A stretch of DNA of 64,000 nucleotides from Actinokineospora bangkokensis. GTDB lineage: Bacteria > Actinomycetota > Actinomycetes > Mycobacteriales > Pseudonocardiaceae. The notes under the pieces were generated by a model, which was given only the letters and a program-made list of their open reading frames with translations, made no database searches and was not told the origin of the DNA. Shown piece after piece: positions 4,252 through 28,440 of the stretch (positions are counted from its first letter, which is position 1; every line of letters starts with the position of its first letter). The stretch is taken from the NCBI RefSeq assembly GCF_001940455.1, contig NZ_MKQR01000026.1, positions 317,577-381,576 on the forward strand, written 5' to 3'. A program made the position numbers and the translations under genes.

Positions 4252-4509
4252 TTACTCGTCCTCGTCCGCCCCGAACCGCATCACGTAGGACTTGGGCGCC
4301 GTGGTGCGCTGGTGCTTGCGCTCCTCCTTCTCCGGGGCGAGCTGCACCTGCCCGAACGCCTCGGCCGACGCGCGCGCCACGGCCTCGGTGTTGGCCCTGG
4401 CCCGCGCCGCCGCGGCGGCCAGCGCCTGCTCGGCGTCGGCCTGGGCGTCGCGGGAGGTCGCCGCGGCCGCGGCGAAGCGGGCCCTGGCCCTGCTCAGCAC
4501 GGGGTTCAC
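4252..4509 (-). CDS. Cassette A small acidic-tail helical protein (unknown)
   Basis: An 85-residue protein, last gene of effector cassette A. Residues 1-55 are Ala/Arg/Glu-rich and predicted helical. The tail holds PKSYVMRFGADEDE, which resembles the RYLSFGGEDED and STVLSFGAEE segments in the cassette B counterpart (7333-7893). It starts with GTG overlapping the upstream stop as GTGA (4506-4509), so translation is probably coupled to the large cassette protein. No WXG motif, signal peptide or membrane segment is seen. A chaperone or adaptor for the large protein is a reasonable guess from position only; the function is unknown. Confidence 0.7.
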   Translation of the reverse strand: MNPVLSRARARFAAAAATSRDAQADAEQALAAAAARARANTEAVARASAEAFGQVQLAPEKEERKHQRTTAPKSYVMRFGADEDE

Positions 4510-6884
4510 TGGTTGACCTCCGGTTCGAGCATGCCCTTGAGCCGGGCGAAGCGGTCGAAGTCCTCGTCGAAGACGTCGTCGGCGATGAGGTAGCGGTTCG
4601 GCTCGCGTTCGCCGCCGCCCGCGGCACCGCCGCCGCCCGCGCCGCCCATCATCGGCATGCCGCCGAAGCCGCCGCCGGTCCCGGAGCCGGAACCGCCCGA
4701 GGGGGCGCTCCCGCCCGCGGCCGCCATGCCCTGCGCGGCGGGGGCCGGGCCGCTCGCGCCCGCACCGGCGTAGGAGCCCTCGCCGGTCGGGGCGGAGCCG
4801 GGCGCGCCACCGGTGACGGCACCGCCGCCGCCGAAGCCCGCGCCGCCACCACCGCCGCCGCCCATCGCACCACCGCCACCGCCCGCACCGCCGCCAGCAC
4901 CGGCACCACCGCCGCCAGCGGCGAGGTCGACCGGGGCCGCGGCCGGGACTGCGGCGCCGTCGAGGCGGCCGCTGAACGCCCCGGAGCGCGCGGCGTCGGT
5001 CGGGTCGGCGAAGTCGACGGTGTAGGACTTCGGGTCGGCCCCGTCTGCGCCCGGCGCGGTGAGGACGATCTTGCCGTCCGCGGTGCGCTCGGCGGTGAGG
5101 CCGCCGTCGAGGGCGATCTTGCCCGTCTCCGGGTCCGGGGTGAGCGCCGCGGCCCGGCGCTCGGCGCCCTGCGGCCCGAAGTCGGCACCCTGCCCGGCCT
5201 GGCCCGCGGGGCCGCCCTGGCCGTCCTGCGGGCCGAAGTCGAGCTGGTAGGTCTTGGGCTTGCCGTCGCCGGTGTCCACGGTGAGGGTGGCGCGGCCCTG
5301 GGCGTCGGGCTCGGTGACGGTGTAGGTGGTGTCACCATCGGTGATGGTGACCTCGTCGCGCGGGCCCCGCCCGACGCCGCCGAGCAGGCCGTCGGCGCCG
5401 TCGGTGGCCCCCGGTTCCAGCTCGCTCTTGCCCTTGCCCGCCCCGCGCAGCTCCTCGACCGCCCGCGCCGCCTGCTGCTCGGCGTCGCGCCGCGCCTGCT
5501 CGGCCGCCGCCGCCGCGTCGGTGCCGCCGCCCGCGCCCGCACCGCTGCCCGCCCCGGCACCCGAGCCCGCACCCGCGCCGGACCCCGAGGGCATCCCCGC
5601 GCTGGAGGGCGCCGTCGCGCCGCCGCCGGTGCCCCCACCGCCACCGCCGCTGCCGCCACCGGCGTTCTGCACCTCGCCGGGCCCCTGCTCGCCGGAGGTC
5701 CGCCCCTCCTGCGGGTCGACCTGGATGCCGCCCGCGAGGTCGGTGAACGGGTCGGCGGGGATCTGCGCGAGGCCCTGGGTGATCGCGTCCCAGCACTCCT
5801 GCACGGTCTGCTTGGTGGCCCGGCACACCTCGTCGAAGGACTGCTTCTTCTGGTCGAACAGGGCCACGAAGGTGCCGTTGAGCCACTTCGCGGCGGCCTC
5901 GGCGGCGATCTCGCGCACCTGGGGCCCCGCGAACAGCCAGGTGACCTCGGAGAAGAACATGTCGTTGAAGCCGGAGAACATCGGCCACCCGCGCATCGCG
6001 CGCAGCTCGTCGCGGTCGGCCTCCTGGCGCGCGGCCCGGATGACCCGGAACACGTCCTCGGGGGTCAGCCCGTCGACGGTGTCGCCCTTGAGCGACAGCA
6101 CGGTCTGCGCGCGCCGGGCCACCGCGGTCTCCACGTGCCCGATGCCCTCGGTGACCAGCGTCGAGGCGGTCTCGGCCGCGTCGCCGACCGCGGTGCCGTG
6201 CGCGACGAGCTTGCCGCCGTAGGCGCTCGCGGCGTCGGCGGCCGGGCCCGACCACACCCCGTGCAGGTCGTTGTTGGCGGTGCTGATGTCCAGGGTGGCC
6301 TCGGTCAGCTCCGAGTGCGCGGTGGCCATGGCGGCGGCGTCGGCGCGGAACTTGGCGAAGGCGATGCCCTTGAGCTCGTCGTAGACGGCCTCGACGTCGC
6401 GGTGCAGGTCCGGGCCGCCGCCGCGCCAGTCGTTGTGCGGGGGGATGAAGTAGTTGAAGAACATCATCCCGCGCGAGCCGGGTTCGAGCAGCTCGTCGGA
6501 AGTGGCCACCCCCGGCCCGCCCGCCTCGGCGGTGCGCCCGGCGGCGTCGGCCAGGTCGTCCTCGGCCTGCGCGGTGGCCCGGTCCCAGCCCGCCCGCCGC
6601 AGCTGCTCGTCGAGGGTCTGCTGCGCGGCGTCGCGGTCGTCCTCGGAGCGCCTGTGGAACTGGCCCCCGAACACCTCGTCCGCGACGCCGTAGCGCTCGG
6701 CGTACTCCAGCACCTCGTCGCGGTTGTGGTTGAAGTCGTCGGTGCCCTTGTCGCCGCCGAAGGCCAGCGGCGACCCGCCGCTGGCCTCGGCGTAGGACCG
6801 CAGGATGCGCGCCTTGTCGTCGTCGGAGACGCTGGGGTCGTCCAGGACGGCCTTGACCTCGTCCCAGGTGCTGCGCTCGGCCAT
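4506..6884 (-). CDS. Cassette A large WXG-domain protein with beta-repeats and Gly-rich tail (putative T7SS substrate)
   Basis: A 792-residue protein without signal peptide or membrane helix. Order: helical region 1-400 with a WXG motif (VWSGPAADAA, W211); Gly/Ala-rich linker 405-455; Ala/Glu helix 457-482; beta-type repeat 1 at about 511-551 (ending GDGKPKTYQLDF); repeat 2 at about 581-626 (ending ADPKSYTVDF); a long Gly-rich stretch to 760; and the C-terminal signature RYLIADDVFDEDFDRF. Cassette B's 757-residue protein has the same architecture. The WXG region and Gly-rich tail resemble large type VII/PPE-like substrates of actinomycetes. No recognisable toxin domain is present. The start ATG overlaps the upstream stop by one base (TGATG). 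Confidence 0.8.
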   Translation of the reverse strand: MAERSTWDEVKAVLDDPSVSDDDKARILRSYAEASGGSPLAFGGDKGTDDFNHNRDEVLEYAERYGVADEVFGGQFHRRSEDDRDAAQQTLDEQLRRAGWDRATAQAEDDLADAAGRTAEAGGPGVATSDELLEPGSRGMMFFNYFIPPHNDWRGGGPDLHRDVEAVYDELKGIAFAKFRADAAAMATAHSELTEATLDISTANNDLHGVWSGPAADAASAYGGKLVAHGTAVGDAAETASTLVTEGIGHVETAVARRAQTVLSLKGDTVDGLTPEDVFRVIRAARQEADRDELRAMRGWPMFSGFNDMFFSEVTWLFAGPQVREIAAEAAAKWLNGTFVALFDQKKQSFDEVCRATKQTVQECWDAITQGLAQIPADPFTDLAGGIQVDPQEGRTSGEQGPGEVQNAGGGSGGGGGGTGGGATAPSSAGMPSGSGAGAGSGAGAGSGAGAGGGTDAAAAAEQARRDAEQQAARAVEELRGAGKGKSELEPGATDGADGLLGGVGRGPRDEVTITDGDTTYTVTEPDAQGRATLTVDTGDGKPKTYQLDFGPQDGQGGPAGQAGQGADFGPQGAERRAAALTPDPETGKIALDGGLTAERTADGKIVLTAPGADGADPKSYTVDFADPTDAARSGAFSGRLDGAAVPAAAPVDLAAGGGGAGAGGGAGGGGGAMGGGGGGGAGFGGGGAVTGGAPGSAPTGEGSYAGAGASGPAPAAQGMAAAGGSAPSGGSGSGTGGGFGGMPMMGGAGGGGAAGGGEREPNRYLIADDVFDEDFDRFARLKGMLEPEVNQ

Positions 6885-7189
6885 CAGTGCATCGCCCCCT
6901 GGACGTTCCCGGTGTTGGCCTGCTCGGTCTCGGCGTACTGGCGGTGGGTGTCGGTCAACCGGTCGCCGTAGGTGCTCGTCGCCGTCGCGTACGCCCGGAT
7001 GCTGTGCACCAGGTGGTCGCGCAGCGCGGCGGTGTAGGCGCTCCCGGTCCCGGCGAACGCCCGCCCGAAGTCGGCGTCGCCCACCTGCCCGTGGTCCACC
7101 GCGTCCGCCTGCGCCCCGATGGGCTCGGCCTGCGCCTTGACCCTCCCGGCGATCCCGGCGAGCTCACCCCCGGTCGTGTACCCGTCCAC
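6884..7189 (-). CDS. Cassette A EspC-like small ESX protein
   Basis: A 101-residue helical protein, first gene of cassette A. I chose the GTG at 7189 because GGAAGAGG lies 8 bases upstream; an in-frame GTG 15 codons further up lacks this. It has a central FG (GDADFGRAFAG, residues 41-42) where WXG100 proteins have WXG, matching the FG positions of the cassette B and C partners. YAETE at 85-89 fits the YxxxD/E type VII export motif. This pattern fits the EspC-like family whose members pair with larger substrates. The stop overlaps the next ATG by one base. Pairing with the 792-residue protein is inferred from order. Confidence 0.75.
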   Translation of the reverse strand: MDGYTTGGELAGIAGRVKAQAEPIGAQADAVDHGQVGDADFGRAFAGTGSAYTAALRDHLVHSIRAYATATSTYGDRLTDTHRQYAETEQANTGNVQGAMH

Positions 7190-7276
7190 AACGATCGCCT
7201 CTTCCCGCTGTCCGCCTTTGCCCACTGCGACGACCGGACCCCGCCGCCCGGTTCCGCTTCCTTCACCAGTGCAAAA

Positions 7277-7316
7277 CGGACGCCCCACCCCCGAGGTGAC
7301 GGGGGTGGGGCGTCCG
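7277..7316 (-). terminator. Terminator of cassette B
   Basis: A perfect 16-bp stem (7277-7292 with 7301-7316) and 8-base loop sits 17 bases beyond the cassette B stop. On the minus strand it is followed by TTTTGC, a short T-run. It separates cassette B from cassette A, so cassette A should have its own promoter in 7190-7276; no clear -10/-35 pair was found there. Confidence 0.75.
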
Positions 7317-7332
7317 GTGTCGTCCACAGTGG

Positions 7333-7893
7333 TCAGCGGTTCATCCAGCTCCGCTCGGACCAGTCGCCGTCGTCGTCCTCGGACCGGGCCGCGGGCCGGG
7401 GGGACCGCCGCTGCGGGGCGTGCGGCGGGGGCGGGCTCACCGGCGGCACCGGCGGTGCCACCCGCTCGGCCACGTCCTCGTCCTCGCCCCCGAACGACAG
7501 GTACCGCTCCGCCCGCGGCCGCTCCACCACGACCGGCGGCGGCTCCGGCGCCCGCACCGGGGGCGGGGCGGGCTGCTGCACCGGGAAGGCGTCCGTGGGT
7601 GCGGCGCTGCCCTGCTGCAACTCCTCCGCCCCGAAGGACAGCACCGTCGACCGCTCTTCCCGCTGCCACGTCGCCTTCGGCTGCTCCTGGGCCTGCCCCC
7701 GGTCCTGCTGCGCGGTGGCCCGCGCGACCATGCCCTCCACCTGGGCGCGCTCCTGCGCCCGCTGCTCGGCCGTGCGCTCCGCGCGGGCGGCGAAGTCGCC
7801 GTCGACCTGGGCGAGCGAGGCGCGGCGGGCGTAGGCGGACTCCTCGAACGGGGCCTGCGCGGCCCGGTACAGCGGGTGCTCCTCGATGCTCAT
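7333..7893 (-). CDS. Cassette B small acidic/proline-rich protein (unknown)
   Basis: A 186-residue protein, last gene of cassette B. Residues 1-85 are charged and helical (many Ala, Glu, Arg, Gln). Two short motifs follow, STVLSFGAEE and ERYLSFGGEDED, then a Pro-rich region and the end SEDDDGDWSERSWMNR. The FG-acidic motif is shared with the 85-residue protein of cassette A, and the EDDDG ending with the 170-residue protein at 14441-14953. The start ATG overlaps the stop of the large protein as ATGA (7890-7893). No known domain is recognised. Its repeated place after the large WXG protein suggests a dedicated partner. Confidence 0.7.
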   Translation of the reverse strand: MSIEEHPLYRAAQAPFEESAYARRASLAQVDGDFAARAERTAEQRAQERAQVEGMVARATAQQDRGQAQEQPKATWQREERSTVLSFGAEELQQGSAAPTDAFPVQQPAPPPVRAPEPPPVVVERPRAERYLSFGGEDEDVAERVAPPVPPVSPPPPHAPQRRSPRPAARSEDDDGDWSERSWMNR

Positions 7894-10163
7894 CGCCGCA
7901 CCTCACCGCCGATCGGGCCCGCGGGCCACTCGTCGTCGGCGTCGAACAGGTTGCCGATGGTGCGCCACGGGCTCGCCTGCCGCTCGGAGTCACCGCCCTG
8001 GCCGCCACCGCCCCCGCCGCCGCCCATGCCCCCGCCGCCCATCACGCCCCCGCCGCCGAGCGCCGAACCCGCCTGCTGTCCGGGCTGGTCGCCCTGCGGG
8101 GACGCGCTGGCCAGGCCTGCCTCACCGGCGCCTGCGGCCTGCATGCCCTGGTCGGTGCCGCCATCGTCGTGCGGCGCACCGGATCCCGGGTCCTGGTCGG
8201 CGAACAGGCCCGAGCCCGCCGACCCCCACTGGTCGTCGGTGGACGTGAACGCCGACGACGCGTGCGTGCTCCCCCAGTCCGCTGTGGCGGGTTGGGCGAA
8301 GGCCTGGTCGGGCTGGGCGGGAACGGCCTGCGGCTGGGCGAACGAGACCGGCTGGGCGCTGGGTGCCGCGCCACTGTGGACCGGTGCGCCCTGCTGCTGG
8401 GCGGTGGGCTGCTCGGGTCGGCCGTGACCGCCCGGGACCTGCCCGGCGGCCTGCTGCGGGTCGGCGGCCTGGCCCTGCAGGTCGACCGCGTACGTCGTCG
8501 GCTTGCCGCTGCCGTCGTCCAGGGTCAGGGCGACGCCGTCGCCCTCCCGCACCGCGGACACCGCCAACCCGCCGTCCTGGAAGTGCGCCACCCCGTCCGC
8601 CCCGGCCTGCACGAATTGACCGGGCTGACCGGGCACCTGCCCGCCATCCGGCCCGAACGCCTGCTGCGGCAGCGACCCGGGCTGGCCCGCGGCGCCGGGC
8701 AGCCCGGGGGCGCCCGGCGTGCCCGGGCCCGCGGCGCCCGCCCCGGTGGTCTGCTGGTCGGCGAAGGAGAGGGTGTAGTGCTTGGGCTGCCCGGACCCGT
8801 CGTCGATGGTGACCTCGACCTGGCCGCGGCTGTCCGGGCTGGACACGGTGATCTGCCGGTCGCCATCGGTGATCGTCACCGTGCTGGGCTGCGCCGCGCC
8901 GGGCTGGCCGAGGCCGGGCACCTGGTCGGCGCCGGGGCCGGTCAGCCCGCCGGGGTCGGTGAGCCCGCTCGGGTCGGTCGTGCCCGCTGCCGGGTCCTCC
9001 GGCGCGCCGGGCGGTTCGAAGATCCCGGTGGTGTCGGGGGGCTCGGGCACCTTGGCCGCGACGGGCTGCGACCCGCCTCCGCCACCGCCCTGGTTGCCGC
9101 CACCACCACCACCGCCTCCGCCTCCGGTGTCGACGGCCTGCGCACCGCCGCCGTCGTGCTTCCCGGCGTCCTTCTTGCCCGCGTCGTCCTTCTTCTCACC
9201 GCCGCCGTCATCCGGCGGGGGCTGCTGGGCCTGCGGCGGGGGTGCCACCTCGGCGAAGGGGTTGGTGGCGGTCGGCTCGCCCACCTTGGCGATGGTGTCG
9301 ATGCCGCTGACGGTCGTGGCGAACTGGTCGAAGTCGCGCTTGATGGCGTCGACGGCGGTCTTGATCCGCGCCCGCCACTCGGTCACCACGTCGTCGTACT
9401 CGCCGCAGAGCTTGTTGAACACCTCGATGAAGACCTGGATCGCCTGCAGGTTCTGCATGCCCTCGGGGAAGGAGTCCACCGAACCGAAGAAGGTGAGCGC
9501 GTCCTCCTCGATGCACTTGATGATCACGTCTTCCATCTTGGGGTGCATCGCCGCGATCCGGTCGAGCTTGTCCAGCTGCTCGTGCAGCCCCTGCTCGGAC
9601 CCCGCGGCGCTGCCGGTGTTGTACGTGCCGCCGCGCTGGCCCGCGTCGCCGAACGCCGCCAGCTCCAGCAGCGAGTCGCGCACGTTGTGCCAGAGCCCGT
9701 CGATGGCCCCCGACAGCAGGGCGTTGCTGTCCTCGTACTGCTTGGCACCGCCGACCACCTGGTCGAACTTGGCCATCGCCGCGTCGGCGGCCTCGCCCTT
9801 CCACACCGCGGAGATGCCGGTCTTGGCGCCGGTGAACGCGTCGGTGAGCTTGGAGCCGATGGTGGCCATGTTCGCCAGGCGCCCGCGCATGTCCCACCAC
9901 GCGCCGAAGTTGATCGGCTCCAGCTTCGGCAGGTCCTTCTCCTCGTCGCCGTCGCCGTAGACCCAGGCACCCCAGTTCGCGCCGCGCAGCGGGTTGCGGC
10001 GCCAGCGGTCGTAGACCCCGCCCAGGTGCTCCCGCTTGAGCTTGTCGCGCAGCGTCTGCACCCGGCCCAGGATGCTCGCGCCGGTGTCGCCGGTGTTCAC
10101 GTGGGGCGGCGGGTTGTCGGTGACCCCGAAGATCTCGTTCGCGGAGTTGGTGACCGCGCCCAT
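7890..10163 (-). CDS. Cassette B large WXG-domain protein with beta-repeats (putative T7SS substrate)
   Basis: A 757-residue paralogue of the cassette A protein. Order: helical region 1-295 with WXG (VWKGEAADAA, W121); a Pro/Lys/Gly-rich linker with a Gly-run near 347-364; beta-repeat 1 at about 427-468 (VTITDGDRQITV ... GQPKHYTLSF); Pro/Gly/Gln linker; repeat 2 at about 528-562 (ending GKPTTYAVDL); Gln-rich and Gly/Met-rich segments; C-terminal PWRTIGNLFDADDEWP. VTITDGD is identical between the first repeats of the two proteins. No signal peptide or membrane helix is seen, which fits export by a type VII system. The stop region overlaps the next start as ATGA; its own ATG overlaps the upstream stop as TGATG. 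Confidence 0.8.
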   Translation of the reverse strand: MGAVTNSANEIFGVTDNPPPHVNTGDTGASILGRVQTLRDKLKREHLGGVYDRWRRNPLRGANWGAWVYGDGDEEKDLPKLEPINFGAWWDMRGRLANMATIGSKLTDAFTGAKTGISAVWKGEAADAAMAKFDQVVGGAKQYEDSNALLSGAIDGLWHNVRDSLLELAAFGDAGQRGGTYNTGSAAGSEQGLHEQLDKLDRIAAMHPKMEDVIIKCIEEDALTFFGSVDSFPEGMQNLQAIQVFIEVFNKLCGEYDDVVTEWRARIKTAVDAIKRDFDQFATTVSGIDTIAKVGEPTATNPFAEVAPPPQAQQPPPDDGGGEKKDDAGKKDAGKHDGGGAQAVDTGGGGGGGGGGNQGGGGGGSQPVAAKVPEPPDTTGIFEPPGAPEDPAAGTTDPSGLTDPGGLTGPGADQVPGLGQPGAAQPSTVTITDGDRQITVSSPDSRGQVEVTIDDGSGQPKHYTLSFADQQTTGAGAAGPGTPGAPGLPGAAGQPGSLPQQAFGPDGGQVPGQPGQFVQAGADGVAHFQDGGLAVSAVREGDGVALTLDDGSGKPTTYAVDLQGQAADPQQAAGQVPGGHGRPEQPTAQQQGAPVHSGAAPSAQPVSFAQPQAVPAQPDQAFAQPATADWGSTHASSAFTSTDDQWGSAGSGLFADQDPGSGAPHDDGGTDQGMQAAGAGEAGLASASPQGDQPGQQAGSALGGGGVMGGGGMGGGGGGGGQGGDSERQASPWRTIGNLFDADDEWPAGPIGGEVRR

Positions 10164-10522
10164 CAGATCGCGCCCCCCGGCCGCCCGAGCGGGCTGCTGC
10201 CGCTGCTGTAGCGGGCCGCCTCGGTGGTCTCGGTGGTGTCCTGCAGGCCCGCCGACGACAGCAGCGCCTGCTCGGTGGCCGTGGCGAGCTGGCTGACGTA
10301 CCCCAGCGACGTGCCCAGCGCCGTCACCGCCGCCATGAACTGCTCCCCCGTGCGCGCGGCGACCGGCAGCTCACCGAACTGCTCGGCGGTCAGCGGGCTC
10401 GCCACCGCGTACCCCGCCGCCGCCTGCAGCGCCTCGGCCAGGTGCCCGAACTCGCGGCCGATCTGCTCGACGGCGGCCGGGTCCATCTGCGTGCCGCCAC
10501 CGCCCTGGTTCCCCTCCGGCAT
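10163..10522 (-). CDS. Cassette B EspC-like small ESX protein
   Basis: A 119-residue helical protein, first gene of cassette B. It carries a central FG (LTAEQFGELPVAA, residues 49-50) at the position used by the cassette A and C partners. Unlike them it lacks a clear YxxxD/E motif: the tyrosines near the end of the helical part read YVSQL and YSSGS. The ATG at 10522 is preceded by AGGGGG 6 bases upstream. That ribosome-binding site lies in one arm of an inverted repeat (10526-10557). Pairing with the 757-residue protein is inferred from order and from the parallel in cassette A. Confidence 0.75.
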   Translation of the reverse strand: MPEGNQGGGGTQMDPAAVEQIGREFGHLAEALQAAAGYAVASPLTAEQFGELPVAARTGEQFMAAVTALGTSLGYVSQLATATEQALLSSAGLQDTTETTEAARYSSGSSPLGRPGGAI

Positions 10523-11945: not shown

Positions 11946-12029
11946 GTGGTGCATCCTCCGCTGCGGTGGGGTGTGGGGGCAACTGGGGTGGGGGAGGTCG
12001 AACGGCCGGGGTGGACGGTCCCCGGAACG

Positions 12030-13516: not shown

Positions 13517-13810
13517 TCAGCCCCACTTCGAGGCGTTGGCCTTCTCGGTGGCCTCGTAGTTCTCGCCCGACTGCTGCACGGCCACGGCGATGGAGCTCAG
13601 GACCTGCTTGAGCTCGTCGTAGGCCTTGTCCCACTCGGCCTGCTTGGCCTGCCACGCCTCGGAGGCGGCACCGGTGTAGCCGGCGGCCAGCGGGGCCAGG
13701 CGGGCCTTGAGGTCGCCCAGCAGGGTCTCCAGCTGGCCGGAGGTGGAGGCGAGCGACGCCGAGGCGTTCGCGACCTCCGCGAAGTTGACGCTGATCATGT
13801 CGCCGTTCAT
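13517..13810 (-). CDS. WXG100-family protein (EsxT position), YTG in place of WXG
   Basis: A 97-residue helical-hairpin protein of the ESAT-6/CFP-10 superfamily and probable secreted substrate of the adjacent ESX-4-type system. Two helices flank the turn LAAGYTGAASEAWQ: the WXG turn reads YTG (45-47), with a Trp at 53. YEATE at 85-89 is a YxxxD/E export motif. It follows the 103-residue gene on the same strand 81 bases downstream, in the place where M. tuberculosis has esxT next to rplM. AGGGAG lies 8 bases before the ATG. It likely forms a heterodimer with the 103-residue partner. Confidence 0.9.
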   Translation of the reverse strand: MNGDMISVNFAEVANASASLASTSGQLETLLGDLKARLAPLAAGYTGAASEAWQAKQAEWDKAYDELKQVLSSIAVAVQQSGENYEATEKANASKWG

Positions 13811-13891: not shown

Positions 13892-14203
13892 TCAGCCACC
13901 CAGGACGTTGGTGATGTTCGACAGCGAGGAGGAGGACTCCTCCTCCTGCTGGACGTACGCCGCGTTCGACTGCTTCAGCTGCTCGGAGATGGCCTGCAGG
14001 GCGTCGTGCAGCTTCGCCGCGTCGGTGTTGTAGCGCTCCATCAGCGTGGCGAAGGCGCGCGCCGCGGCACCCTTCCAGTTGTCGTGCAGCGGGGCGAGGG
14101 CGCCACCGAGGGACTTGAGCGCGTTCTGGCTCTCCTCGTTGACGTTGTCGACGTCGACGGCGGCCTTGGCCATCTCTTCGGGCGTGATTCCGTAACCGGA
14201 CAT
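13892..14203 (-). CDS. WXG100-family protein (EsxU position)
   Basis: A 103-residue helical-hairpin protein with a canonical WXG turn (DNWKGAAARAF, W43) and a YxxxE export motif (YVQQE, 83-87). I chose the ATG at 14203, giving MSGYGITPEEM. A start further upstream would add about 50 residues, basic and unlike WXG100 proteins, through the leader. It lies first of the esx pair; partner and order match esxU-esxT of mycobacterial ESX-4. Two identical 9-bp direct repeats lie upstream (14231-14256). Confidence 0.92.
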   Translation of the reverse strand: MSGYGITPEEMAKAAVDVDNVNEESQNALKSLGGALAPLHDNWKGAAARAFATLMERYNTDAAKLHDALQAISEQLKQSNAAYVQQEEESSSSLSNITNVLGG

Positions 14204-14963: not shown

Positions 14964-16826
14964 CTACCCGGTGACCACCATCGACCGCACGACCGCCTCG
15001 CACGCCCGCCCGACCCGGTCCGCGCCCCCGTCGGTGTGCTGGCAGCCGACGCTGACCTGCGAGGTGCCCTGGAACAGGACGTACCAGTCGACGGTAGCGC
15101 CTCGGTCGTCCAGGCGTTCGCGATAGCGCACAACGTCGCGGCCCGCGTAGGTCGCGGGCTCGGTGAACCCCGAGAAGCTGTCCCCGCCGGACTCGTAGTC
15201 CGCGCGCAGCTTCTGCACCGCCCGGCCCCGGTCGGCGCTGCTGTCGAAGCTGAGCCGCCGCTCCTGCACCAGCACCAGGTCGGCGCCGTCGGTGGCGTCG
15301 GCGGGCTTGATCTCGGTCCGCAGCAGCTGCGCGTCGCCGCCGGTCTGGGTCCACCCGTCGGGCAGGGAGAACCGGTACTCGTACTGCGCGATCACCCGCC
15401 CGGGGTCGGCGGGCGGCTGGTCCTGGCGCCCGAGCAGCACGACGACCCCCACGGCGACCGCCGCGGCCAGCACCGCGGCGCCGATCCCGACGAGCACCCC
15501 GACCCGCTTGCGCCCGGACCGCGCCGGGGCCCCGGCGGGCGGGGTCGGGAACCGCCCGCCCGGGGGCGGGGCGCCGGCGCCGGACCACGGGTCGCCGGGG
15601 CCCGCCTGCCGCGCGGGGGCGGCGCCGGGCCAGGGGTCGCCCAGGGGCCTGCCCTGGGCGGCCGGGCCCGCTGGGGGCGAGGGGCGGCCCGCGGGGTGCT
15701 GGGCGGCGGCCGGGGCGCCCCGGGTGGTGCCCTGCGGGGCACGGGCGACCGCGGGCGCGGGGCGCTCAGGACCCGCGGGGACCGCGCGCAGGGCACCGCG
15801 GGCGACGACGGTCTCAGGCTGGTCGAGGGTCACCGGGACGACCCCGGTGCGGTCGGCCACCCGCCGGGCGACCAGGGGGATGCGGCTGGAGCCGCCGACC
15901 AGGAACACCGCCGCCAGCTCCGCCGGTGCCAGGCCCGCGTCGGCGACCGCCGCGGCGACCATGCCCGCGGCCCGGCTGACCGGCTCGTCGATCAGCCGCT
16001 CCAGGTCGTCGCGGGTGACGTGCGCGTCGGGGAACGGCGCGGGCAGCGGGACGTCGGCGTAGGTGTGCCGCGACAGCGTCTCCTTGGCCCCGCGCACGTC
16101 CTGGCGCAGCACCCGCCTGCGCCGCCGCTCGGCCAGGTCGCGGCCCTCCACCAGGTCGCGCCAGGCCCGCGGGTGCCCGGCGTGCGCGCCGATGTGCTCC
16201 AGCAGCAGCTGGTCGACGTCCGCCCCGCCGAACGACGGGTCGCCCCGGGTCGCGAGCACCGCGTGCGCGGGCGGCCGGGACCGCACCACGCCCACGTCGA
16301 CCGTCCCGCCGCCGAGGTCGAGCACCGCGATCGCCCGCTCCGGCGGCCCGGGGGAGGTCGCCGCGTGGAACACCGCCGCGGCCACCGGCTCCGGCACCAG
16401 CACCACCCGGTCGGCCAACCCGGCGGCGGCCGAGCGCAGCACCTGGGTCCGGCGCACCCCCCAGTCGGCGGGGTGGGTGAGCACCAGCTGGTCCACCGGC
16501 GCGCCCCCGGCCACCCGCCGCGCCTCCCCCACCGCCCTGGCCAGCACCGCGTGGAAGGCCGCGCGCACCGGCACCACGGTGTCGCCCAGCAGCAGCTCCG
16601 GCTCGTCCACCCGCCGCTTCGGGTGCGGCTCGAACCGGGACGGGTCCAGCGCCGCCTGCCGCTCGGCCTCCTGCCCCACGAACAGCGTGCCGTCCTGCCC
16701 GGCGTAGACGGCCGAGCTCAGCAGCGGCTGCCCGTCCACCACCACGACCTGCGGCTCCCGGCCCCCCACCGCCACCGCCACGCAGGTGCTGGAGGTGCCG
16801 AAGTCCACCGCAACGCGCAGAGCCAC
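14964..16826 (-). CDS. Hsp70-like, membrane-anchored type VII secretion-associated protein (Rv3446c-type)
   Basis: A 620-residue protein. Residues 1-350 are an Hsp70/actin-fold ATPase domain with VAVDFGTSST (phosphate 1), LDLGGGTVDVGVV (phosphate 2) and LVGGSSRIPLV (adenosine); there is no substrate-binding domain. A Pro/Ala-rich linker (350-438) and one membrane helix (about 441-466) lead to an outside domain (about 477-620) resembling the TIGR03931/Rv3446c-type C-terminal region. M. tuberculosis has Rv3446c in the same place between eccC4 and esxU. The start is GTG with GGAGG 6 bases upstream. An ATP-dependent role coupled to the ESX channel is likely but unproven. Confidence 0.88.
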   Translation of the reverse strand: MALRVAVDFGTSSTCVAVAVGGREPQVVVVDGQPLLSSAVYAGQDGTLFVGQEAERQAALDPSRFEPHPKRRVDEPELLLGDTVVPVRAAFHAVLARAVGEARRVAGGAPVDQLVLTHPADWGVRRTQVLRSAAAGLADRVVLVPEPVAAAVFHAATSPGPPERAIAVLDLGGGTVDVGVVRSRPPAHAVLATRGDPSFGGADVDQLLLEHIGAHAGHPRAWRDLVEGRDLAERRRRRVLRQDVRGAKETLSRHTYADVPLPAPFPDAHVTRDDLERLIDEPVSRAAGMVAAAVADAGLAPAELAAVFLVGGSSRIPLVARRVADRTGVVPVTLDQPETVVARGALRAVPAGPERPAPAVARAPQGTTRGAPAAAQHPAGRPSPPAGPAAQGRPLGDPWPGAAPARQAGPGDPWSGAGAPPPGGRFPTPPAGAPARSGRKRVGVLVGIGAAVLAAAVAVGVVVLLGRQDQPPADPGRVIAQYEYRFSLPDGWTQTGGDAQLLRTEIKPADATDGADLVLVQERRLSFDSSADRGRAVQKLRADYESGGDSFSGFTEPATYAGRDVVRYRERLDDRGATVDWYVLFQGTSQVSVGCQHTDGGADRVGRACEAVVRSMVVTG

Positions 16827-17037: not shown

Positions 17038-20000
17038 TTATTCGGGGTTGATCCAGGCGATCTGCATGAGGGCCTGGCCGACCTTGCGGCTGACGAGGGT
17101 GCCGCGGCCGGGGGGCAGGGCGCTGGGCTTGACGGTGCCGAGGAGGGCGCCCTCGTCCTTGTTGCCGGAGCCGACCATGCCGGGGGAGGCGATTTCGCGG
17201 AGCTTGCCCAGGACGGGGTCGAACATCGCGCGGGCGGCGCCGCCGGTGCGGCGGACGGCGACGACGTGCAGGCCGACGTCCTTGGCCTGGGGGAGGAACT
17301 CGGCGAGGGGGGCCAGGGGGTTGTTGCCCTGGGTGGCGACGAGGTCGTAGTCGTCGACGATGAGGAAGAGCTCGGGGCCCTTCCACCAGGAGCGGTTCTT
17401 GAGCTGCTCCTGGGTGACGTCGGGGCCGGGGAGGCGCTTGAGCATGGAGCCCTTGACGTCCTTGACCATGTCGCCGAGCTGGTTGGACGAGACCGCGTAG
17501 CCCAGCAGGTGGTCGGTGTCGACGAAGCCGAGCATGGTGCGGCGGTAGTCGACCAGGATGATGACCGCTTCCTTGGGGGTGTAGCGGGTCATGATGCCGC
17601 GGACCACCGTGCGCAGCAGGTTCGTCTTGCCGGACTCGCCGTCGGCGAAGGCGAAGAAGTGCGGGTCGGCGTCGAAGTCCAGGTAGACCGGGGCCAGCTC
17701 GTTCTCGTCCACGCCGATCGGCACCAGCCGGGTGTCCTTGCGGGTGTCCTGGGCCAGCAGGTCCTCGTAGGCCATCAGCTCGGGCAGCAGGCGGACCTTC
17801 GGCGCGTGCCTGCCGCGCCAGCCCTGGTTGATCCTGGCCACCGCGTCCTGCACGCCCGCGGCGACGTCCTGGTCGTTGGACGAGCCGTCGATGCGCGGCA
17901 GGCCCACCAGGAAGTGCAGCTTGTCGCGGGACAGGCCGCGGCCGGGGCGGCCCGCGGGGACGTTGACCGCGACGCGGCGGTCCACGTCGGACTCGCTGGG
18001 GTCACCCAGGCGCAGCTCGAACCGGGTGCCCAGCAGGTCCTTGAGCGCGGGCCGGATCTCCGCCCACCGGTTCGCCGCCACGACCACGTGGATGCCGAAC
18101 GACAGGCCCTGCGCGGCCAGGTTGACGACCTGCATCTCCAGCGCCTCGAACTCCTGGCGGAAGTTCAGCCAGCCGTCGACGAGCAGGAACACGTCGCCGA
18201 ACGGGTCGTCGCGCAGCTGCCCCGCGCGCTTGCGGTTGCGGTAGTCGGCCATCGAGTCGATGCCCAGGTCGCGGAAGCGCTGCTCGCGGTCGGTCACCAG
18301 GCTGGTCACCTCGGCGACCATGCGGCGGGCCTTGTCCGGGTCGAGCCTGCCAGCCACCCCGCCGACGTGCGGCAGGTTCTCCAGCGAGGCGAGCGTGCCG
18401 CCACCGAGGTCGAGGCAGTAGAACTGCACCTCCTCGGGGGTGTGCGTGAGCGCCATCGACATGATCAGCGTGCGCAGCAGCATCGACTTGCCCGACTGCG
18501 GGCCGCCCGCGATGGCCGCGTGGCCCGCTGCGCCGGAGAAGTCGGCCATCAGCAGGTCGCGGCGCTGCTCGTAGGGCTTGTCGATGATGCCCAGCGGCAC
18601 CACCAGCCGCCCGTTGTGGTAGTACCCGACCGGCGACAGGCCCCGGTCCTCGGTGGGCTGGAGCGGGGGGAACAGGGTGTCCAGCGAGTTGGGCTCGTTC
18701 AGCGGCGGCAGCCACACCTCGTGCGCGGGCGGGCCCTGGCCCACCAGCCGCTGCACGATGACGTCGAGCTCGGAGGCCTCGGTGGGCGTGTCCGGCTTCT
18801 TCTCCTCCACCACCGGGGCGGCGGCGGGCACCTCCGGCTCCACGGGGACCTCGACGTAGTCCGGGACGAACAGCTTCGCCCGGCGGTCGCCGGTCACCGG
18901 GGCAGAGGGCCCCGCGGCCTGCATGCCCGCGGGCCGGTAGGCGCCGGAGACGTAGGCGGCCTTGAACCGGTGCATCGTCGAGGTGTCGAACTTGAGGTAC
19001 CCCGAGCCCGGGATGGACGGCAGCTCGAAGGCGTCCGGCACGCCGATGGCCGCGCGGGACTCCGCGGCGGAGAAGGTCTTGAGGCCGATGCGGTAGGACA
19101 GGTGCGAGTCCAGGCCGCGCAGCTTGCCCTCCTCCAGCCGCTGCGAGGCGAGCAGCATGTGCATCTGCAGCGACCGGCCCAGGCGGCCGATGGCGACGAA
19201 CAGGTCGATGAAGTCCGGCTTGGCGCTGAGCAGCTCGGAGAACTCGTCGACGACGATGAACAGCGCGGGCAGCGGGTCGAGGTCGGCGCCGTTCTCGCGG
19301 GCCTTCTCGTACTCCCACACGTTCTTGAAGTTGCCGCCGTTCTTCAGCGCCTCCTGGCGCCGGTTCATCTCCCCGGCCAGCGCGTCCTTCATGCGGTCGA
19401 CCAGGGTCAGGTCGCCCTGCAGGTTGGTGATGACGGCGGCGACGTGCGGGGCGCTGTCGAGGCCGAGGAAGGTCGCGCCACCCTTGAAGTCGACCAGGAT
19501 GAAGTTCAGCGTGGTCGAGGAGTGCGTGGCCAGCATGCCCAGCACCAGGGTGCGCAGGAACTCCGACTTGCCGGACCCGGTCGCGCCGATGCACAGCCCG
19601 TGCGGGCCCATGCCCTCCATCGCCGCTTCCTTGATGTCGAGCTCGACCGGCTGGCCGAACTCGCCGACGCCGAAGGGCACCCGGTAGCGGTCGCGCACCG
19701 GGCGCGGGCGCCAGGCCTGGGCCACGTCGAAGGTCATCGGGTCGCCGGGGATGCCCAGCAGCTCCAGCAGCGTCGGGTTGGACAGCAGCGGCTCCTCGTC
19801 GCCGGAGTCCGCGGCCGCCGCGCCCAGCCGGTAGGGCGAGAGCTTGCGGGCCAGCGCCTCGGCCTCGGCCACCGAGAGCCGGTCGGGGGAGGCGAACCAC
19901 TCCACGCCGGAGGCGCTGCGCGCGCCGAGCCGGTCGCCCTCGACGACCAGCCGCAGGCCGCGGCGGGCGGTGAGGTTGCCCAGGCACTCCGACAGGTCCA

Positions 20001-21033
20001 CCAGGGTGACCCCGACCAGGCCCTCCTCCAGGATGACCTGCTCCTCGCGGGTGACCTCGCCGTCGTCGACGACGATCACCACGTGCGGCTGGTCGGGCTG
20101 CGGCGGGGCGTTGCGGGTGAACCGCTGCCGGTCGCGCAGCTCGTCGTCGAGCCACTCCTCGACCTGGGCCAGCGAGCTGGCCATCATGCGCAGCTGGCCG
20201 ATGCCGTCGAGCAGGGTGGGGTGCTGGGTGTGCGGCAGCCACTTGGCCCACTCCCACTCCGCCTTGGCCTTGCCCGAGGTGACCACGGCGACCAGCACGT
20301 CGTCGGGGGTGTGGAAGGTGACCAGCTGGGCGATGAGCGCGCGGGCCAGGGCGCGGGCGCGGTCCTTGTCGCCCGCGATGCCCACCGCGGCGAAGCCGCG
20401 CACGGCGACCTGGATGGGCAGCTCGGGCACGATCGAGTGCGCGCGCACGAACCGGCGCAGCGCCAGGGTGGCGATCGGCTCCAGCTCGTCGACCGGGCCG
20501 GTCTGCGGCGGGACGAGCCGGGTGGCCAGCCGCTGCGAGCCCCGGCCCGCGCGCAGGTGGCAGAAGTCCGGGTCGGCCTGGCGGCGCTCCCACATCCGGC
20601 GGCTGGTGGCGATCGACCACAGCGCCTGCGGGTCGGGGTGGGTCCACTCCAGCGACGCGCGCTGCTCCAGCGAGGCCTCGCGGGCGCGGTCGCGCATCTG
20701 GCCGAGGTAGCGCAGGTAGTCCTTGCGGTCCTCGTTCATCTCGGCCTTCTTCTGGCCGCCGCCCCGACCGCCCATGCCCCCGGCCATCATGCCGACCGTC
20801 GACATCAGGAACATGCCGCCGAAGAGCAGGGAGCTCGGGTTGCGGCCCCCCACCACGAACATGAAGACCATCATCCCGACCGAGGCCACGATCATGACCG
20901 CGGGCAGCATCTTGAGCATGATGTTGCCCGGGATGACCCTGGGCACCTCGGGCGGCGGCTCCAGGTGGACCTCGCCCCCGGGCTGCCGGGGCGCGGCCAG
21001 GCGGGGCGACCGCTTGAACTGCAGCGTGCTCAC
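17038..21033 (-). CDS. eccC: Type VII secretion ATPase EccC (ESX-4 type)
   Basis: The FtsK/SpoIIIE-family motor of the ESX channel, 1331 residues in one chain. Two membrane helices (about 40-62 and 67-88) are followed by three nucleotide-binding domains with Walker A at GATGSGKSE (K489), GGPQSGKSM (K849) and DGESGKTN (K1136). Walker B is full in domain 1 (VVDEFSELL) and degenerate in domain 2 (LLVDGWL), as usual for EccC; domain 3 reads LIVDDYD. I chose GTG at 21033 (VSTLQFKRSPRL) because it gives the family N-terminus; upstream extension is low-complexity read-through. The C-terminal domain would bind the EsxB-type signal. It runs divergently from eccD. Confidence 0.97.
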   Translation of the reverse strand: MSTLQFKRSPRLAAPRQPGGEVHLEPPPEVPRVIPGNIMLKMLPAVMIVASVGMMVFMFVVGGRNPSSLLFGGMFLMSTVGMMAGGMGGRGGGQKKAEMNEDRKDYLRYLGQMRDRAREASLEQRASLEWTHPDPQALWSIATSRRMWERRQADPDFCHLRAGRGSQRLATRLVPPQTGPVDELEPIATLALRRFVRAHSIVPELPIQVAVRGFAAVGIAGDKDRARALARALIAQLVTFHTPDDVLVAVVTSGKAKAEWEWAKWLPHTQHPTLLDGIGQLRMMASSLAQVEEWLDDELRDRQRFTRNAPPQPDQPHVVIVVDDGEVTREEQVILEEGLVGVTLVDLSECLGNLTARRGLRLVVEGDRLGARSASGVEWFASPDRLSVAEAEALARKLSPYRLGAAAADSGDEEPLLSNPTLLELLGIPGDPMTFDVAQAWRPRPVRDRYRVPFGVGEFGQPVELDIKEAAMEGMGPHGLCIGATGSGKSEFLRTLVLGMLATHSSTTLNFILVDFKGGATFLGLDSAPHVAAVITNLQGDLTLVDRMKDALAGEMNRRQEALKNGGNFKNVWEYEKARENGADLDPLPALFIVVDEFSELLSAKPDFIDLFVAIGRLGRSLQMHMLLASQRLEEGKLRGLDSHLSYRIGLKTFSAAESRAAIGVPDAFELPSIPGSGYLKFDTSTMHRFKAAYVSGAYRPAGMQAAGPSAPVTGDRRAKLFVPDYVEVPVEPEVPAAAPVVEEKKPDTPTEASELDVIVQRLVGQGPPAHEVWLPPLNEPNSLDTLFPPLQPTEDRGLSPVGYYHNGRLVVPLGIIDKPYEQRRDLLMADFSGAAGHAAIAGGPQSGKSMLLRTLIMSMALTHTPEEVQFYCLDLGGGTLASLENLPHVGGVAGRLDPDKARRMVAEVTSLVTDREQRFRDLGIDSMADYRNRKRAGQLRDDPFGDVFLLVDGWLNFRQEFEALEMQVVNLAAQGLSFGIHVVVAANRWAEIRPALKDLLGTRFELRLGDPSESDVDRRVAVNVPAGRPGRGLSRDKLHFLVGLPRIDGSSNDQDVAAGVQDAVARINQGWRGRHAPKVRLLPELMAYEDLLAQDTRKDTRLVPIGVDENELAPVYLDFDADPHFFAFADGESGKTNLLRTVVRGIMTRYTPKEAVIILVDYRRTMLGFVDTDHLLGYAVSSNQLGDMVKDVKGSMLKRLPGPDVTQEQLKNRSWWKGPELFLIVDDYDLVATQGNNPLAPLAEFLPQAKDVGLHVVAVRRTGGAARAMFDPVLGKLREIASPGMVGSGNKDEGALLGTVKPSALPPGRGTLVSRKVGQALMQIAWINPE

Positions 21034-21110
21034 CGGGTGGACACCTTCTTCGAGTCGAGAACTGCGGGGGCTGGCCAGCCGGGCCGGTCGGGCCAGTCCT
21101 GGCTGAGAAG

Positions 21111-21800
21111 CTACCGAACCGGGCGGTCGGACCCGGTCGGTTCGGTGGAGTTGGCCGCGGGCAGCGACCCGATGAGGGCCACCACCACGACCGCGCCCAG
21201 CGCGACGGGCACCACGCCGCCGCCGGACACCGCGAGGAAGTACACGACGGCCACCGCCACCGCGCACACCAGCGCGCCGACGGCGAAGCGGCCAGGGCCC
21301 TCGGCGCGCCTGCCCGCCAGGAACACCGCGACCGCGATGAGCAGCAGGCTGCCGTGGACGAGCGCGCCGGGCTCGCCGCCGGTGGCGACCAACCGCCACG
21401 GCGCCACCGCGCCCGCCGCCACCGCGGCCACCGGCGGCAGCGCGGCGGCCAGCACCGGCGACCCGCCGGGGCGCACCGCCGAGCCGACCAGCAGCACCGC
21501 GGTGGCCAGCAGCATGAGCACCACCGCCAGCAGCGGCCGCAGGGTGCGCCCGCCGAGGAAGAACAGCTCCGCGGTGACCGCGACCGACGCGGACACCAGC
21601 ACCAGGCCGAGCGCGACCCGGTCCGGCAGCACGTGCCCGCTGCCGGAGAGCACCAGCACGAGCACCCCGACCAGGAAGGCGACCGCGGGCAACGCGGCGG
21701 CCGGGTGCCCGTGCGCCACCACCACCAGGTACGCGCCGAGGGCGACCGAGCCCAGGACGGACAGCACCGCCACCGCGCGGTACCCGCTGCGTCCTGCCAT
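21111..21800 (-). CDS. Eight-helix membrane protein in the ESX-4 locus (unknown)
   Basis: A 229-residue polytopic membrane protein with about eight hydrophobic segments and short, mostly uncharged loops; the ends RSGYRA and STEPTGSDRPVR are polar. The ATG at 21800 was chosen because upstream codons in frame offer no good start. It sits 77 bases upstream of eccC on the same strand, so both are probably transcribed from the eccC/eccD divergent region. M. tuberculosis has no gene at this place. No domain is recognised. It could be a channel accessory or a chance neighbour; its constant hydrophobic pattern supports a real gene. Confidence 0.8.
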   Translation of the reverse strand: MAGRSGYRAVAVLSVLGSVALGAYLVVVAHGHPAAALPAVAFLVGVLVLVLSGSGHVLPDRVALGLVLVSASVAVTAELFFLGGRTLRPLLAVVLMLLATAVLLVGSAVRPGGSPVLAAALPPVAAVAAGAVAPWRLVATGGEPGALVHGSLLLIAVAVFLAGRRAEGPGRFAVGALVCAVAVAVVYFLAVSGGGVVPVALGAVVVVALIGSLPAANSTEPTGSDRPVR

Positions 21801-21992
21801 GCGCCCACCCCCGTGCCCAGCGACCTCCCGGCGAACGCGCCCGCACCGGGGGCGGGACCCCGGCGTGCCCGTGCTCGACGACTTTCCCGGAACCGCCGCA
21901 CCAGCCGATCCCGGTGCGGCCATACTAGGACCGATCCCCGCCGGACCGGTTGGCGTCCGGCGACCCTGTGGACAACCCGAGGGGACTGGCGA
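21801..21992. promoter_or_regulatory. Divergent promoter region of the ESX-4 core
   Basis: These 192 bases separate the 229-residue gene and eccC (minus) from eccD-mycP (plus). The only AT-richer island is CATACTAGGA at 21921-21930, which could supply a -10 in either direction. No strong -35 is seen. Both halves of the secretion core must be expressed from this region. Confidence 0.35.
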
Positions 21993-24887: not shown

Positions 24888-24946
24888 CTGACGCCGTCCC
24901 CTGAGGGGGAGCGGGGCTGCGGCCCCGCCCCCGCCTGCGGCGTCAG
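24888..24946. terminator. Bidirectional terminator between mycP and effector pair C
   Basis: Nested stems: outer 9-bp arms (24888-24896 with 24938-24946) and an inner GC-rich stem (GGGGGAGCGGGGC with GCCCCGCCCCC-type pairing). The right outer arm overlaps the last codons of the convergent gene ending at 24943. It can end both units. Confidence 0.55.
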
Positions 24947-26220: not shown

Positions 26221-26233
26221 GGGGGCTCCCTGT

Positions 26234-26551
26234 TCAGGCCTGGCCGCTGCGGTTGAGGGAGACGACGCCGTCGTCGTCGGAGGTCTGGTACTTCTCGGCG
26301 ACCTGGCCCAGGCTGGCGGAGGCGGACTTGAGCGCCTCGACGCCCCTGGCCAGCTGCGTGCGCAGCGCGTCGGCCGCGCGCAGGTAGGACTCGGTGACCC
26401 GCACCTGGTTGCCCAGCGCGCCGAACGACTCGGCGGTCAGCGGCGCCTGCTGGAGCGTCGTCGAGCAGGACGCCAGCACCTCCGACGCGTCCCCGACGCT
26501 CTTGGCGTACTGCCCGACCCACGTCGGGTCGACCCTGATGGACTCGGCCAC
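26234..26551 (-). CDS. Effector pair C EspC-like small ESX protein
   Basis: A 105-residue helical protein with central FG (LTAESFGALGNQV, residues 43-44) and the export motif YQTSD at 88-92, followed by an acidic DDD. The start is GTG at 26551 with AGGAGG 7 bases upstream. TAESFGAL and the cassette B segment TAEQFGEL are nearly the same, which supports common descent of the EspC-like partners. It probably dimerises with the 425-residue protein encoded next. It lies 106 bases after eccB on the same strand. Confidence 0.8.
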   Translation of the reverse strand: MAESIRVDPTWVGQYAKSVGDASEVLASCSTTLQQAPLTAESFGALGNQVRVTESYLRAADALRTQLARGVEALKSASASLGQVAEKYQTSDDDGVVSLNRSGQA

Positions 26552-28292: not shown

Positions 28293-28440
28293 TCTCGGCC
28301 TGCTGCTCTCCCCGTCGCGGTACCGTTCCGCAGGATAGCCGCACGGGTGCGGCCGCAGGCGGGTCTTGGGCCAAGCCGCGGGAAACCCACCCGTCCGCCG
28401 CGGCGGGCGAGCACGCAGTCGAGGGGAAGAGACCGATCGG

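What the first reader, a model, noticed from the sequence alone, without database searches (positions are those of the whole stretch)
4252..10522. Two tandem paralogous three-gene effector cassettes between glmS and glmM
Both units have the same order: small EspC-like protein, 750-800 residue WXG-domain protein, small acidic protein. The junctions are also alike: TGATG between genes 1 and 2, and GTGA or ATGA between genes 2 and 3. A strong terminator separates the units. They look like dedicated secreted complexes for the nearby ESX-4-type channel, which in mycobacteria has few known substrates. I do not recognise this cassette as a described system.
Basis: partly seen in the sequence, partly recalled or inferred. 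Interest (0 to 1): 0.78.

Follow-up and report, generated by a model that had tools for sequence, protein, structure and literature searches.

The report
ESX-4-linked EspC/WXG secretion cassettes
Two neighbouring three-gene units in a soil actinomycete encode what look like dedicated export partners of the oldest type VII secretion channel (ESX-4), a channel whose cargo is hardly known, and a simpler version of the unit appears to sit at the same place in mycobacteria.

Summary
Two minus-strand trios lie between glmM and glmS: gene 1 (101-119 aa, EspC/WXG100-like), gene 2 (757 and 792 aa, WXG domain plus disordered tail), gene 3 (186 and 85 aa). Overlaps are TGATG and ATGA/GTGA; a 17-bp hairpin terminator separates the units. 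Profiles show genes 1 and 2 are paralogous pairs (91%, 98%); the gene-3 pair shares only a 20-column motif. Units A and B belong to two old clades. Of 59 family genomes read, all 53 with a full-length EccB of the glmM-linked kind carry gene 2 (one cut by a contig end); the 6 others (4 genera; ESX-4 lost, broken or divergent) carry none or one remnant. A gene 1-gene 2 pair lies near glmM in 7 of 8 genomes of a second family; by recalled gene order this is Rv3440c-Rv3439c of M. tuberculosis. Gene 2B's N-domain models well (pLDDT 89) and looks PPE-like; its C-terminal half carries two beta repeats without a Pfam family. Gene 1 has the YxxxD/E export signal in 0 of 14 A-like units and 50 of 52 others. 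Best reading: dedicated ESX-4 substrate pair plus accessory protein; export untested. New variant of a known kind.

The parts
10163..10522 (-). unit A gene 1 (P0001, 119 aa): small helical EspC/WXG100-like protein, without YxxxD/E signal
7890..10163 (-). unit A gene 2 (P0002, 757 aa): WXG-domain protein of clade A, two beta repeats, Gly/Met-rich tail ending ER..PWRTIGNLFDADDE
7333..7893 (-). unit A gene 3 (P0003, 186 aa, pI 4.95): charged start, LSFGAEE and LSFGGEDED motifs, Pro-rich, C-terminal DDDGDWSERSWM
7277..7316 (-). intrinsic terminator between the units (17-bp stem, then GUUUUG)
6884..7189 (-). unit B gene 1 (P0004; 101 aa if GTG at 7189 is the start, chosen by alignment with homologues): YxxxE near the C-terminus
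4506..6884 (-). unit B gene 2 (P0005, 792 aa): 160-aa helical extension, PPE-like WXG domain (W211, G213), disordered part, two beta repeats, tail
5232..5345 (-). beta repeat 1 of gene 2B (residues 514-551)
5010..5099 (-). beta repeat 2 of gene 2B (residues 596-625)
8763..8873 (-). beta repeat 1 of gene 2A (residues 431-467)
8481..8579 (-). beta repeat 2 of gene 2A (residues 529-561)
4252..4509 (-). unit B gene 3 (P0006, 85 aa, pI 8.4): keeps the Ala/Arg-rich start and YVMRFGADEDE, lacks the Pro-rich part and DDDDFSNxSWL end
13517..13810 (-). WXG100 protein of the ESX locus (EsxU/EsxT position)
13892..14203 (-). second WXG100 protein of the ESX locus (start read by eye)
14964..16826 (-). Hsp70-like ATPase fused to an Rv3446c-type C-terminal domain (TIGR03931, over its cut-off)
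17038..21846 (-). EccC (open frame; EccCa and EccCb models)
21354..23390 (+). EccD (open frame; domain from about residue 222)
23387..24865 (+). mycosin-type subtilase (Peptidase_S8)
24943..26220 (-). P0007, third WXG-like protein with Gly/Met-rich tail, inside the ESX locus
26234..26551 (-). P0008, third EspC-like protein, closest to gene 1A (90%, 27% identity); start at GTG 26551 proposed
26658..28784 (-). EccB
28366..29913 (+). EccE domain protein (open frame)

Best explanation
Each unit encodes a dedicated substrate complex of the glmM-linked ESX-4 type VII secretion system. Gene 1 and gene 2 would pair as helical hairpins, as PE-PPE or EspC-EspA do: in the units other than clade A, gene 1 carries the YxxxD/E signal and gene 2 the WxG turn, which together form the recognised export signal. 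The pair is passed to EccC and exported; the Gly/Met-rich linker and the two-repeat beta module of gene 2 would be the working end in the cell envelope or outside. Gene 3, encoded directly after gene 2, is most likely a cytosolic chaperone or adaptor that keeps gene 2 soluble or docks it, filling the place of EspG (passages of PMC4791881 give espG to ESX-1, -2 and -5 and do not list it among the ESX-4 parts). Shown: gene order, homology, WXG domain, signal, ESX-4 co-retention, the fold model. Inferred: pairing, export, the role of gene 3 and of the beta module.
For: WXG100 domain in gene 2: W and G invariant in the 29-row alignment; PF06013 matched by 30 of 31 N-domains at E up to 1, best 6.6e-9; TIGR03930 by 25 of 31 at E up to 0.01; profile matches EsxB at 3.6e-5. 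Model pLDDT 89.3; PPE41 and PPE15 are the Foldseek rows with the highest probability, 0.96-0.99, and with PPE4 align at Z 8.7-9.8, rmsd 3.2-3.6. Gene 1: EspC 16 of 26 and WXG100 17 of 26 at E up to 0.1; EsxA, EsxB and PE25 in the PDB profile search; YxxxD/E in 54 of 70, shuffles 10.4. Co-retention: gene 2 in 53 of 53 with a full EccB of the glmM-linked kind against no intact gene 2 in 6. Gene 3 follows gene 2 within 250 nt in 53 of 69 and ends in a common pattern in 51 of 54.
Against: No export data exist. Gene 1 of the clade-A-like units lacks YxxxD/E in 14 of 14, so unit A may use another signal or not be exported alike. All Foldseek E-values exceed 0.05, BAR domains reach Z 10.6, and the tool warns that Z under about 13 can be chance for helical bundles. 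In the gene 1 PDB search two coiled-coil or cytochrome constructs score above EsxA. The window's own six proteins have no convincing Pfam or NCBIfam match (the best, ChaB for P0002, is 16.2 bits against a cut-off of 27). No gene-3-family gene was found with any of the 7 pairs of the second family, so gene 3 is not universally needed. Co-retention rests on 4 genera; shared ancestry and linkage could explain part. G089 has an ESX locus beside glmM and no cassette. In the order, 28 of the 31 other-family genomes with an EccB were read and none has the cassette at glmM.
Confidence: 0.7

Rival explanations
1. The trio is an envelope or regulatory complex that works beside ESX-4 without being its cargo: gene 2 would bind an envelope protease or other periplasmic partner, as the recalled mycobacterial counterpart Rv3439c (Ppr2) binds the PDZ domain of Rip1 in a two-hybrid screen.
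For: A review passage names Rv3439c as Ppr2, a Rip1 PDZ interactor (PMC6963305). Gene 2 has no enzyme domain. SigM is reported to activate esx-4 genes in passages of PMC10117145.
Against: Two-hybrid only, seen here in a review; the Rv3439c link is by recalled gene order. A periplasmic partner would still need a route out of the cytosol, and the WXG / YxxxD/E signature points to ESX itself.
Confidence: 0.15
2. Antibacterial or host-directed toxins: gene 2 a polymorphic T7SS toxin and gene 3 its immunity protein.
For: A WXG-type N-domain followed by a tail of varying length is the layout of T7SS toxins (recalled); small gene 3 directly downstream.
Against: Gene 2 C-termini are not polymorphic: two beta repeats in 61 of 70 and one in a 62nd, a common ER..WRTxGxLF tail in 42 of 66 (shuffles 0.0). 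No toxin family in Pfam or NCBIfam for the window proteins or in Pfam for the repeat region. Gene 3 ends are much alike (51 of 54), unlike immunity proteins.
Confidence: 0.07
3. Passive hitch-hiking: the cassette is merely conserved filler near ESX-4 and its loss with ESX-4 reflects local deletions.
For: glmM and EccB are usually 11-27 kb apart.
Against: glmM, rpsI and rplM, which lie between them, are still found in all 6 genomes without an intact cassette. Where no ESX locus lies beside glmM but ESX-4-like genes exist elsewhere (G066, G079; EccB of G031 is on another contig) the genes are kept. More than one gene 2 occurs in 11 of 59 genomes.
Confidence: 0.08

Closest known systems
PE/PPE pairs with EspG (ESX-3, ESX-5)
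   Same: Small helical YxxxD/E partner encoded directly upstream of a WxG partner; the gene 2B N-domain model resembles PPE41/PPE15 and PPE4.
   Different: No Pro-Pro-Glu start, Pfam PPE hits only 3 of 31 at best 0.012, 160-aa N-terminal extension, beta repeats, and gene 3 in the place of espG.
EspC-EspA type partners (ESX-1; recalled)
   Same: Gene 1 matches the EspC family in 16 of 26 members at E up to 0.1.
   Different: Gene 2 is about twice as long as EspA (recalled) and linked to ESX-4; the window's own gene 1 proteins give no Pfam hit.
Rv3440c-Rv3439c (Ppr2) of M. tuberculosis (identity by recalled gene order)
   Different: No beta repeats in the three gene 2 proteins tested, no gene 3 found, Ala/Pro-rich tail.
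EsxU/EsxT, the reported ESX-4 substrates
   Same: WXG superfamily; a WXG100 pair lies in the same locus.
   Different: About 100 aa each, no long C-terminal part.

Membership tests
ESX-4 type secretion locus (the neighbour) | EccB, EccC, EccD, mycosin, Rv3446c-type protein and two WXG100 genes together | tested here: met
   composition as in passages of PMC4791881. An EccE domain is also present
WXG100 superfamily (gene 2 domain) | helical hairpin with W-x-G turn | tested here: met
   W211/G213 invariant; PF06013 in 30 of 31 members, the window's own being the one without a hit; helices 176-210 and 214-264 in the model
PPE family | Pfam PPE match above cut-off and Pro-Pro-Glu start | tested here: not met
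   3 of 31 at best 0.012; no PPE motif at the start of P0005
PPE family | PPE-like fold | tested here: inconclusive
   prob 0.96-0.99 but E-values 0.34-0.62; Z 8.7-9.8, no better than BAR domains
EspC family (gene 1) | PF10824 match | tested here: inconclusive
   16 of 26 at E up to 0.1, best 7.7e-9; none for P0001 and P0004
T7SS-signal partner (gene 1, units outside clade A) | YxxxD/E after the second helix | tested here: met
   50 of 52; 54 of 70 over all units, shuffles 10.4
T7SS-signal partner (gene 1, clade-A-like units) | YxxxD/E after the second helix | tested here: not met
   0 of 14
ESX-4 substrate | EccC4-dependent export | not testable with these tools
   needs secretion assays
Polymorphic T7SS toxin with immunity gene | variable C-terminal toxin domain and cognate immunity protein | tested here: not met
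   C-terminal half uniform, no toxin family found

The most novel reading that the evidence does not exclude
Gene 3 is the first member of a new class of dedicated type VII chaperone/adaptors that replaces EspG in ESX-4, docking through its DDDDFSNxSWL end. The exported gene 2 reports channel activity to an envelope protease, with the mycobacterial counterpart (Ppr2/Rip1) linking ESX-4 export to SigM control of esx-4 genes. Unit A would use a signal other than YxxxD/E.
Probability: 0.15. Interest if true: 0.82.

Novelty: new variant of a known kind. Interest (0 to 1): 0.6.

Why it matters
ESX-4 is the ancestral actinobacterial type VII system and the search for its cargo is open: a 2025 study says that identifying substrates beyond EsxU/T is still needed (PMC11791044, passages). 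This locus gives a conserved candidate in non-pathogens with named, held genomes, with a likely counterpart pair in mycobacteria; no listing or passage that I saw ties that pair to ESX-4 (searches; open-licence papers only). It also offers a small protein family with a strongly conserved end that could be a new chaperone type, a two-repeat beta module without a Pfam family, and a natural comparison of units with and without the YxxxD/E signal.

Tried and rejected
Single-protein Pfam and NCBIfam scans of the six proteins gave nothing useful. Pairwise BLAST missed gene 1 homology, saw chiefly the beta repeat in gene 2, and gave 6e-4 for gene 3 over a stretch with the SFGAEE motif; profiles were needed. 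A recent tandem duplication was rejected by the tree (16 of 64 inner branches are unresolved and some rows are long or poorly filled). P0009, the acidic protein beside the WXG100 genes, has a layout like gene 3 but no significant relation. The fold search of the beta module found nothing convincing (best Z 5.5, mixed folds); that does not show a new fold. A single-protein scan of genome contigs found nothing. The iterated gene 1 and gene 2 profiles also pick up the EsxU/T-like proteins, so convergence alone is superfamily-level; one search is the cleaner test. The motif patterns were written after looking at the sequences; a looser middle motif of gene 3 fitted 36 of 54 and had no control. Not tested: whether gene 3 is cytosolic, complexes, and how often the family occurs away from glmM (L219 and L222 suggest that some does).
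Full report
WHAT IS THERE. The window (G000 contig C26) holds glmS (1432-3291), a plus-strand alpha/beta hydrolase (3383-4201), six minus-strand genes and glmM (10611-11954). The six genes form two trios. Unit A: 119, 757 and 186 aa. Unit B: about 101, 792 and 85 aa (the start of gene 1B was chosen from the alignment). The same-genus genome G045 matches Actinokineospora spheciospongiae: its contig has the same length, 38007, as that of named locus L217 and the gene 2 position agrees, so the window's genus is inferred to be Actinokineospora.

PARALOGY. First-round profiles give gene 1 A-B 91% over 89 columns, gene 2 A-B 98% over 229 columns, gene 3 A-B 39% over 20 columns; the sets were shown disjoint for genes 1 and 2, and four non-matching pairs gave 0.05-2.3%. 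Gene 3B is a gene-3-like start plus the FG-acidic motif without the Pro-rich part and the conserved end. The gene 2 tree (67 rows) places 2A in a starred clade of 12 (97/81) and 2B in another starred clade of 4 (100/99); the larger side also holds the three rows of the second family. The root is a midpoint and 16 of 64 inner branches are open. The two units are therefore old paralogues. In 11 of 59 family genomes, the window's included, more than one gene 2 lies in the interval, in mixed clade combinations.

DISTRIBUTION IN THE FAMILY. glmM was found in 59 of 60 genomes (the miss, G011, is 74% complete), and the stretch next to it was read in all 59 (58 fetched, plus the window). 'Cassette' below means gene 2. 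It passed 1e-10 in 53, of which one, G042, is a 297-aa remnant; G028 failed only because its contig ends inside the gene, which one search shows (2.1e-6). A full-length EccB (1e-93 or better) lies near glmM in 50 genomes and on another contig in 3: G045 and G009, whose contigs end nearby, and G031, where the locus may have moved (not read). All 53 have the cassette (52, G028). I checked EccB in each, not the rest of the locus. The other six: G037 has no EccB, and rplM and truA are neighbours; G002 has an EccB stump and EccC in two pieces; G048 has an EccB stump although EccC is whole on another contig; G042 has EccC in two pieces 12 kb apart; G050 has EccC in two pieces and a divergent EccB; G004 has a whole EccC and a divergent EccB. 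None has an intact cassette. Fisher p on genome counts is 2e-8, but these six are only 4 genera.

OUTSIDE THE FAMILY. In the order sample (81 genomes) 9 are of this family and all have the cassette. Of the other 72, 67 were fetched; 5 were not (G064 without a glmM match, G072, G107 and G126 at contig ends, and G106, which I left out). In family f8, 7 of 8 carry the gene 1-gene 2 pair near glmM (G116 lies about 10 kb off with no glmS in reach) and G128, with EccC and EccD but no EccB beside glmM, has a weak 186-aa remnant. In the other 59 none was found between glmM and glmS; glmS was not reached in 4 of them (L100, L131, L138, L154). Weak matches lie beyond glmS in L092, L102, L118 and L121. 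An EccB exists in 31 other-family genomes (48 of 81 in all); 28 of these were read. In the class sample 12 of the 16 EccB-bearing genomes outside this family and f8 were read and none had it; glmS was not reached in 4. In G066 and G079 no ESX locus was seen beside glmM, but EccC genes 48% and 56% identical to the window's exist elsewhere, and the pair is kept. Against the rule, G089 has ESX next to glmM and no cassette. Of 33 named loci (some are the same genomes), 31 show glmM in reach; L219 and L222, two Amycolatopsis species, do not.

GENE 2. The N-domain of 2B (residues 1-385) is all but wholly helical at pLDDT 89.3. Its part from about residue 161 aligns with PPE41 and PPE15 (Foldseek prob 0.96-0.99, E 0.34-0.62) and, with PPE4, at VIA Z 8.7-9.8, rmsd 3.2-3.6; but BAR domains reach Z 10.6 and the tool warns about helical bundles, so the claim rests on the WXG sequence evidence as well. 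The rest is low-complexity linker plus two 38-residue beta repeats, found in 62 of 70 gene 2 proteins (61 with two copies, one with one); the eight without are listed. Each repeat is modelled as four strands at about pLDDT 90, the linker below 50, with no Pfam family above chance for the repeats. A Gly/Met-rich segment and an ER..WRTxGxLF tail follow (42 of 66, shuffles 0.0; pattern written after looking).

GENE 1. Members match EspC and WXG100. YxxxD/E occurs in 54 of 70 (shuffles 10.4). Split by the tree, it is in 50 of 52 other units and 0 of 14 clade-A-like units; that set of 14 is the clade of 12 plus two rows near the root, L034_376 and L065_507. This is the clearest functional difference between the two units of the window.

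GENE 3. 53 of 69 gene 2 genes have a gene-3-family gene within 250 nt. Of 54 family members 51 end in the acidic-FSNxSWL pattern (shuffled tails 0.4; pattern written after looking); two of the three misses, one of them P0003, differ only slightly.

A THIRD PAIR. Inside the ESX locus P0008 (EspC-like) and P0007 (WXG-like, Gly/Met tail) form a third pair. P0008 is closest to gene 1A (90%, 27% identity; only 2.1% to gene 1B) and P0007 to gene 2B (76% over 90 columns, 14% identity; 24% to gene 2A). P0008 has a YxxxD (read by eye).

MECHANISM. Best supported: a gene 1-gene 2 heterodimer recognised by EccC through YxxxD/E plus WxG, exported by ESX-4, with gene 3 as chaperone or adaptor. Export, pairing and the gene 3 role are inference.

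LITERATURE. Rv3439c or Rv3440c appears in 6 papers of the library. I read passages of two: Ppr2, a Rip1 PDZ interactor (PMC6963305), and a gene table (PMC7771538); the other four I saw in the listing only. Passages of PMC4791881 list ESX-4 parts without this cassette (12 of 14 places shown). Passages of PMC11791044 and PMC10117145 name EsxU/T as the ESX-4 substrates or expected substrates. That the f8 pair is Rv3440c-Rv3439c rests on recalled gene order. Subscription papers were not searched.

Noticed in passing
window 14964-16826: An Hsp70-like ATPase half is fused to an Rv3446c-type C-terminal domain (TIGR03931 over its cut-off), beside the WXG100 genes of the ESX-4 locus.
   Followed up: partly
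window 24943-26551: A third EspC-like / WXG-like pair (P0008, P0007) sits inside the ESX locus between the mycosin and EccB genes, with the same Gly/Met-rich tail style.
   Followed up: partly
window 14441-14953: P0009, a small acidic Pro-rich protein beside the WXG100 genes, has a layout like gene 3 (Pro-rich, RR, DDDGYF end) but no significant similarity.
   Followed up: partly
L178 (G042 upstream of glmM): EccC of the glmM-linked ESX-4 lies in two pieces 12 kb apart and the cassette gene 2 is a 297-aa remnant: a natural case of joint decay.
   Followed up: partly
L173 and L192 (G066, G079): No ESX genes were seen beside glmM; EccC genes like the window's exist elsewhere in these genomes, and the gene 1-gene 2 pair stayed by glmM.
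   Followed up: partly
window 3383-4201: A PETase/chlorophyllase-like hydrolase stands beside glmS; relatives were found in 30 of the 33 named loci.
   Followed up: no
L219 and L222: Gene 2 relatives in two Amycolatopsis species lie away from glmM (none within 6.5 kb).
   Followed up: no
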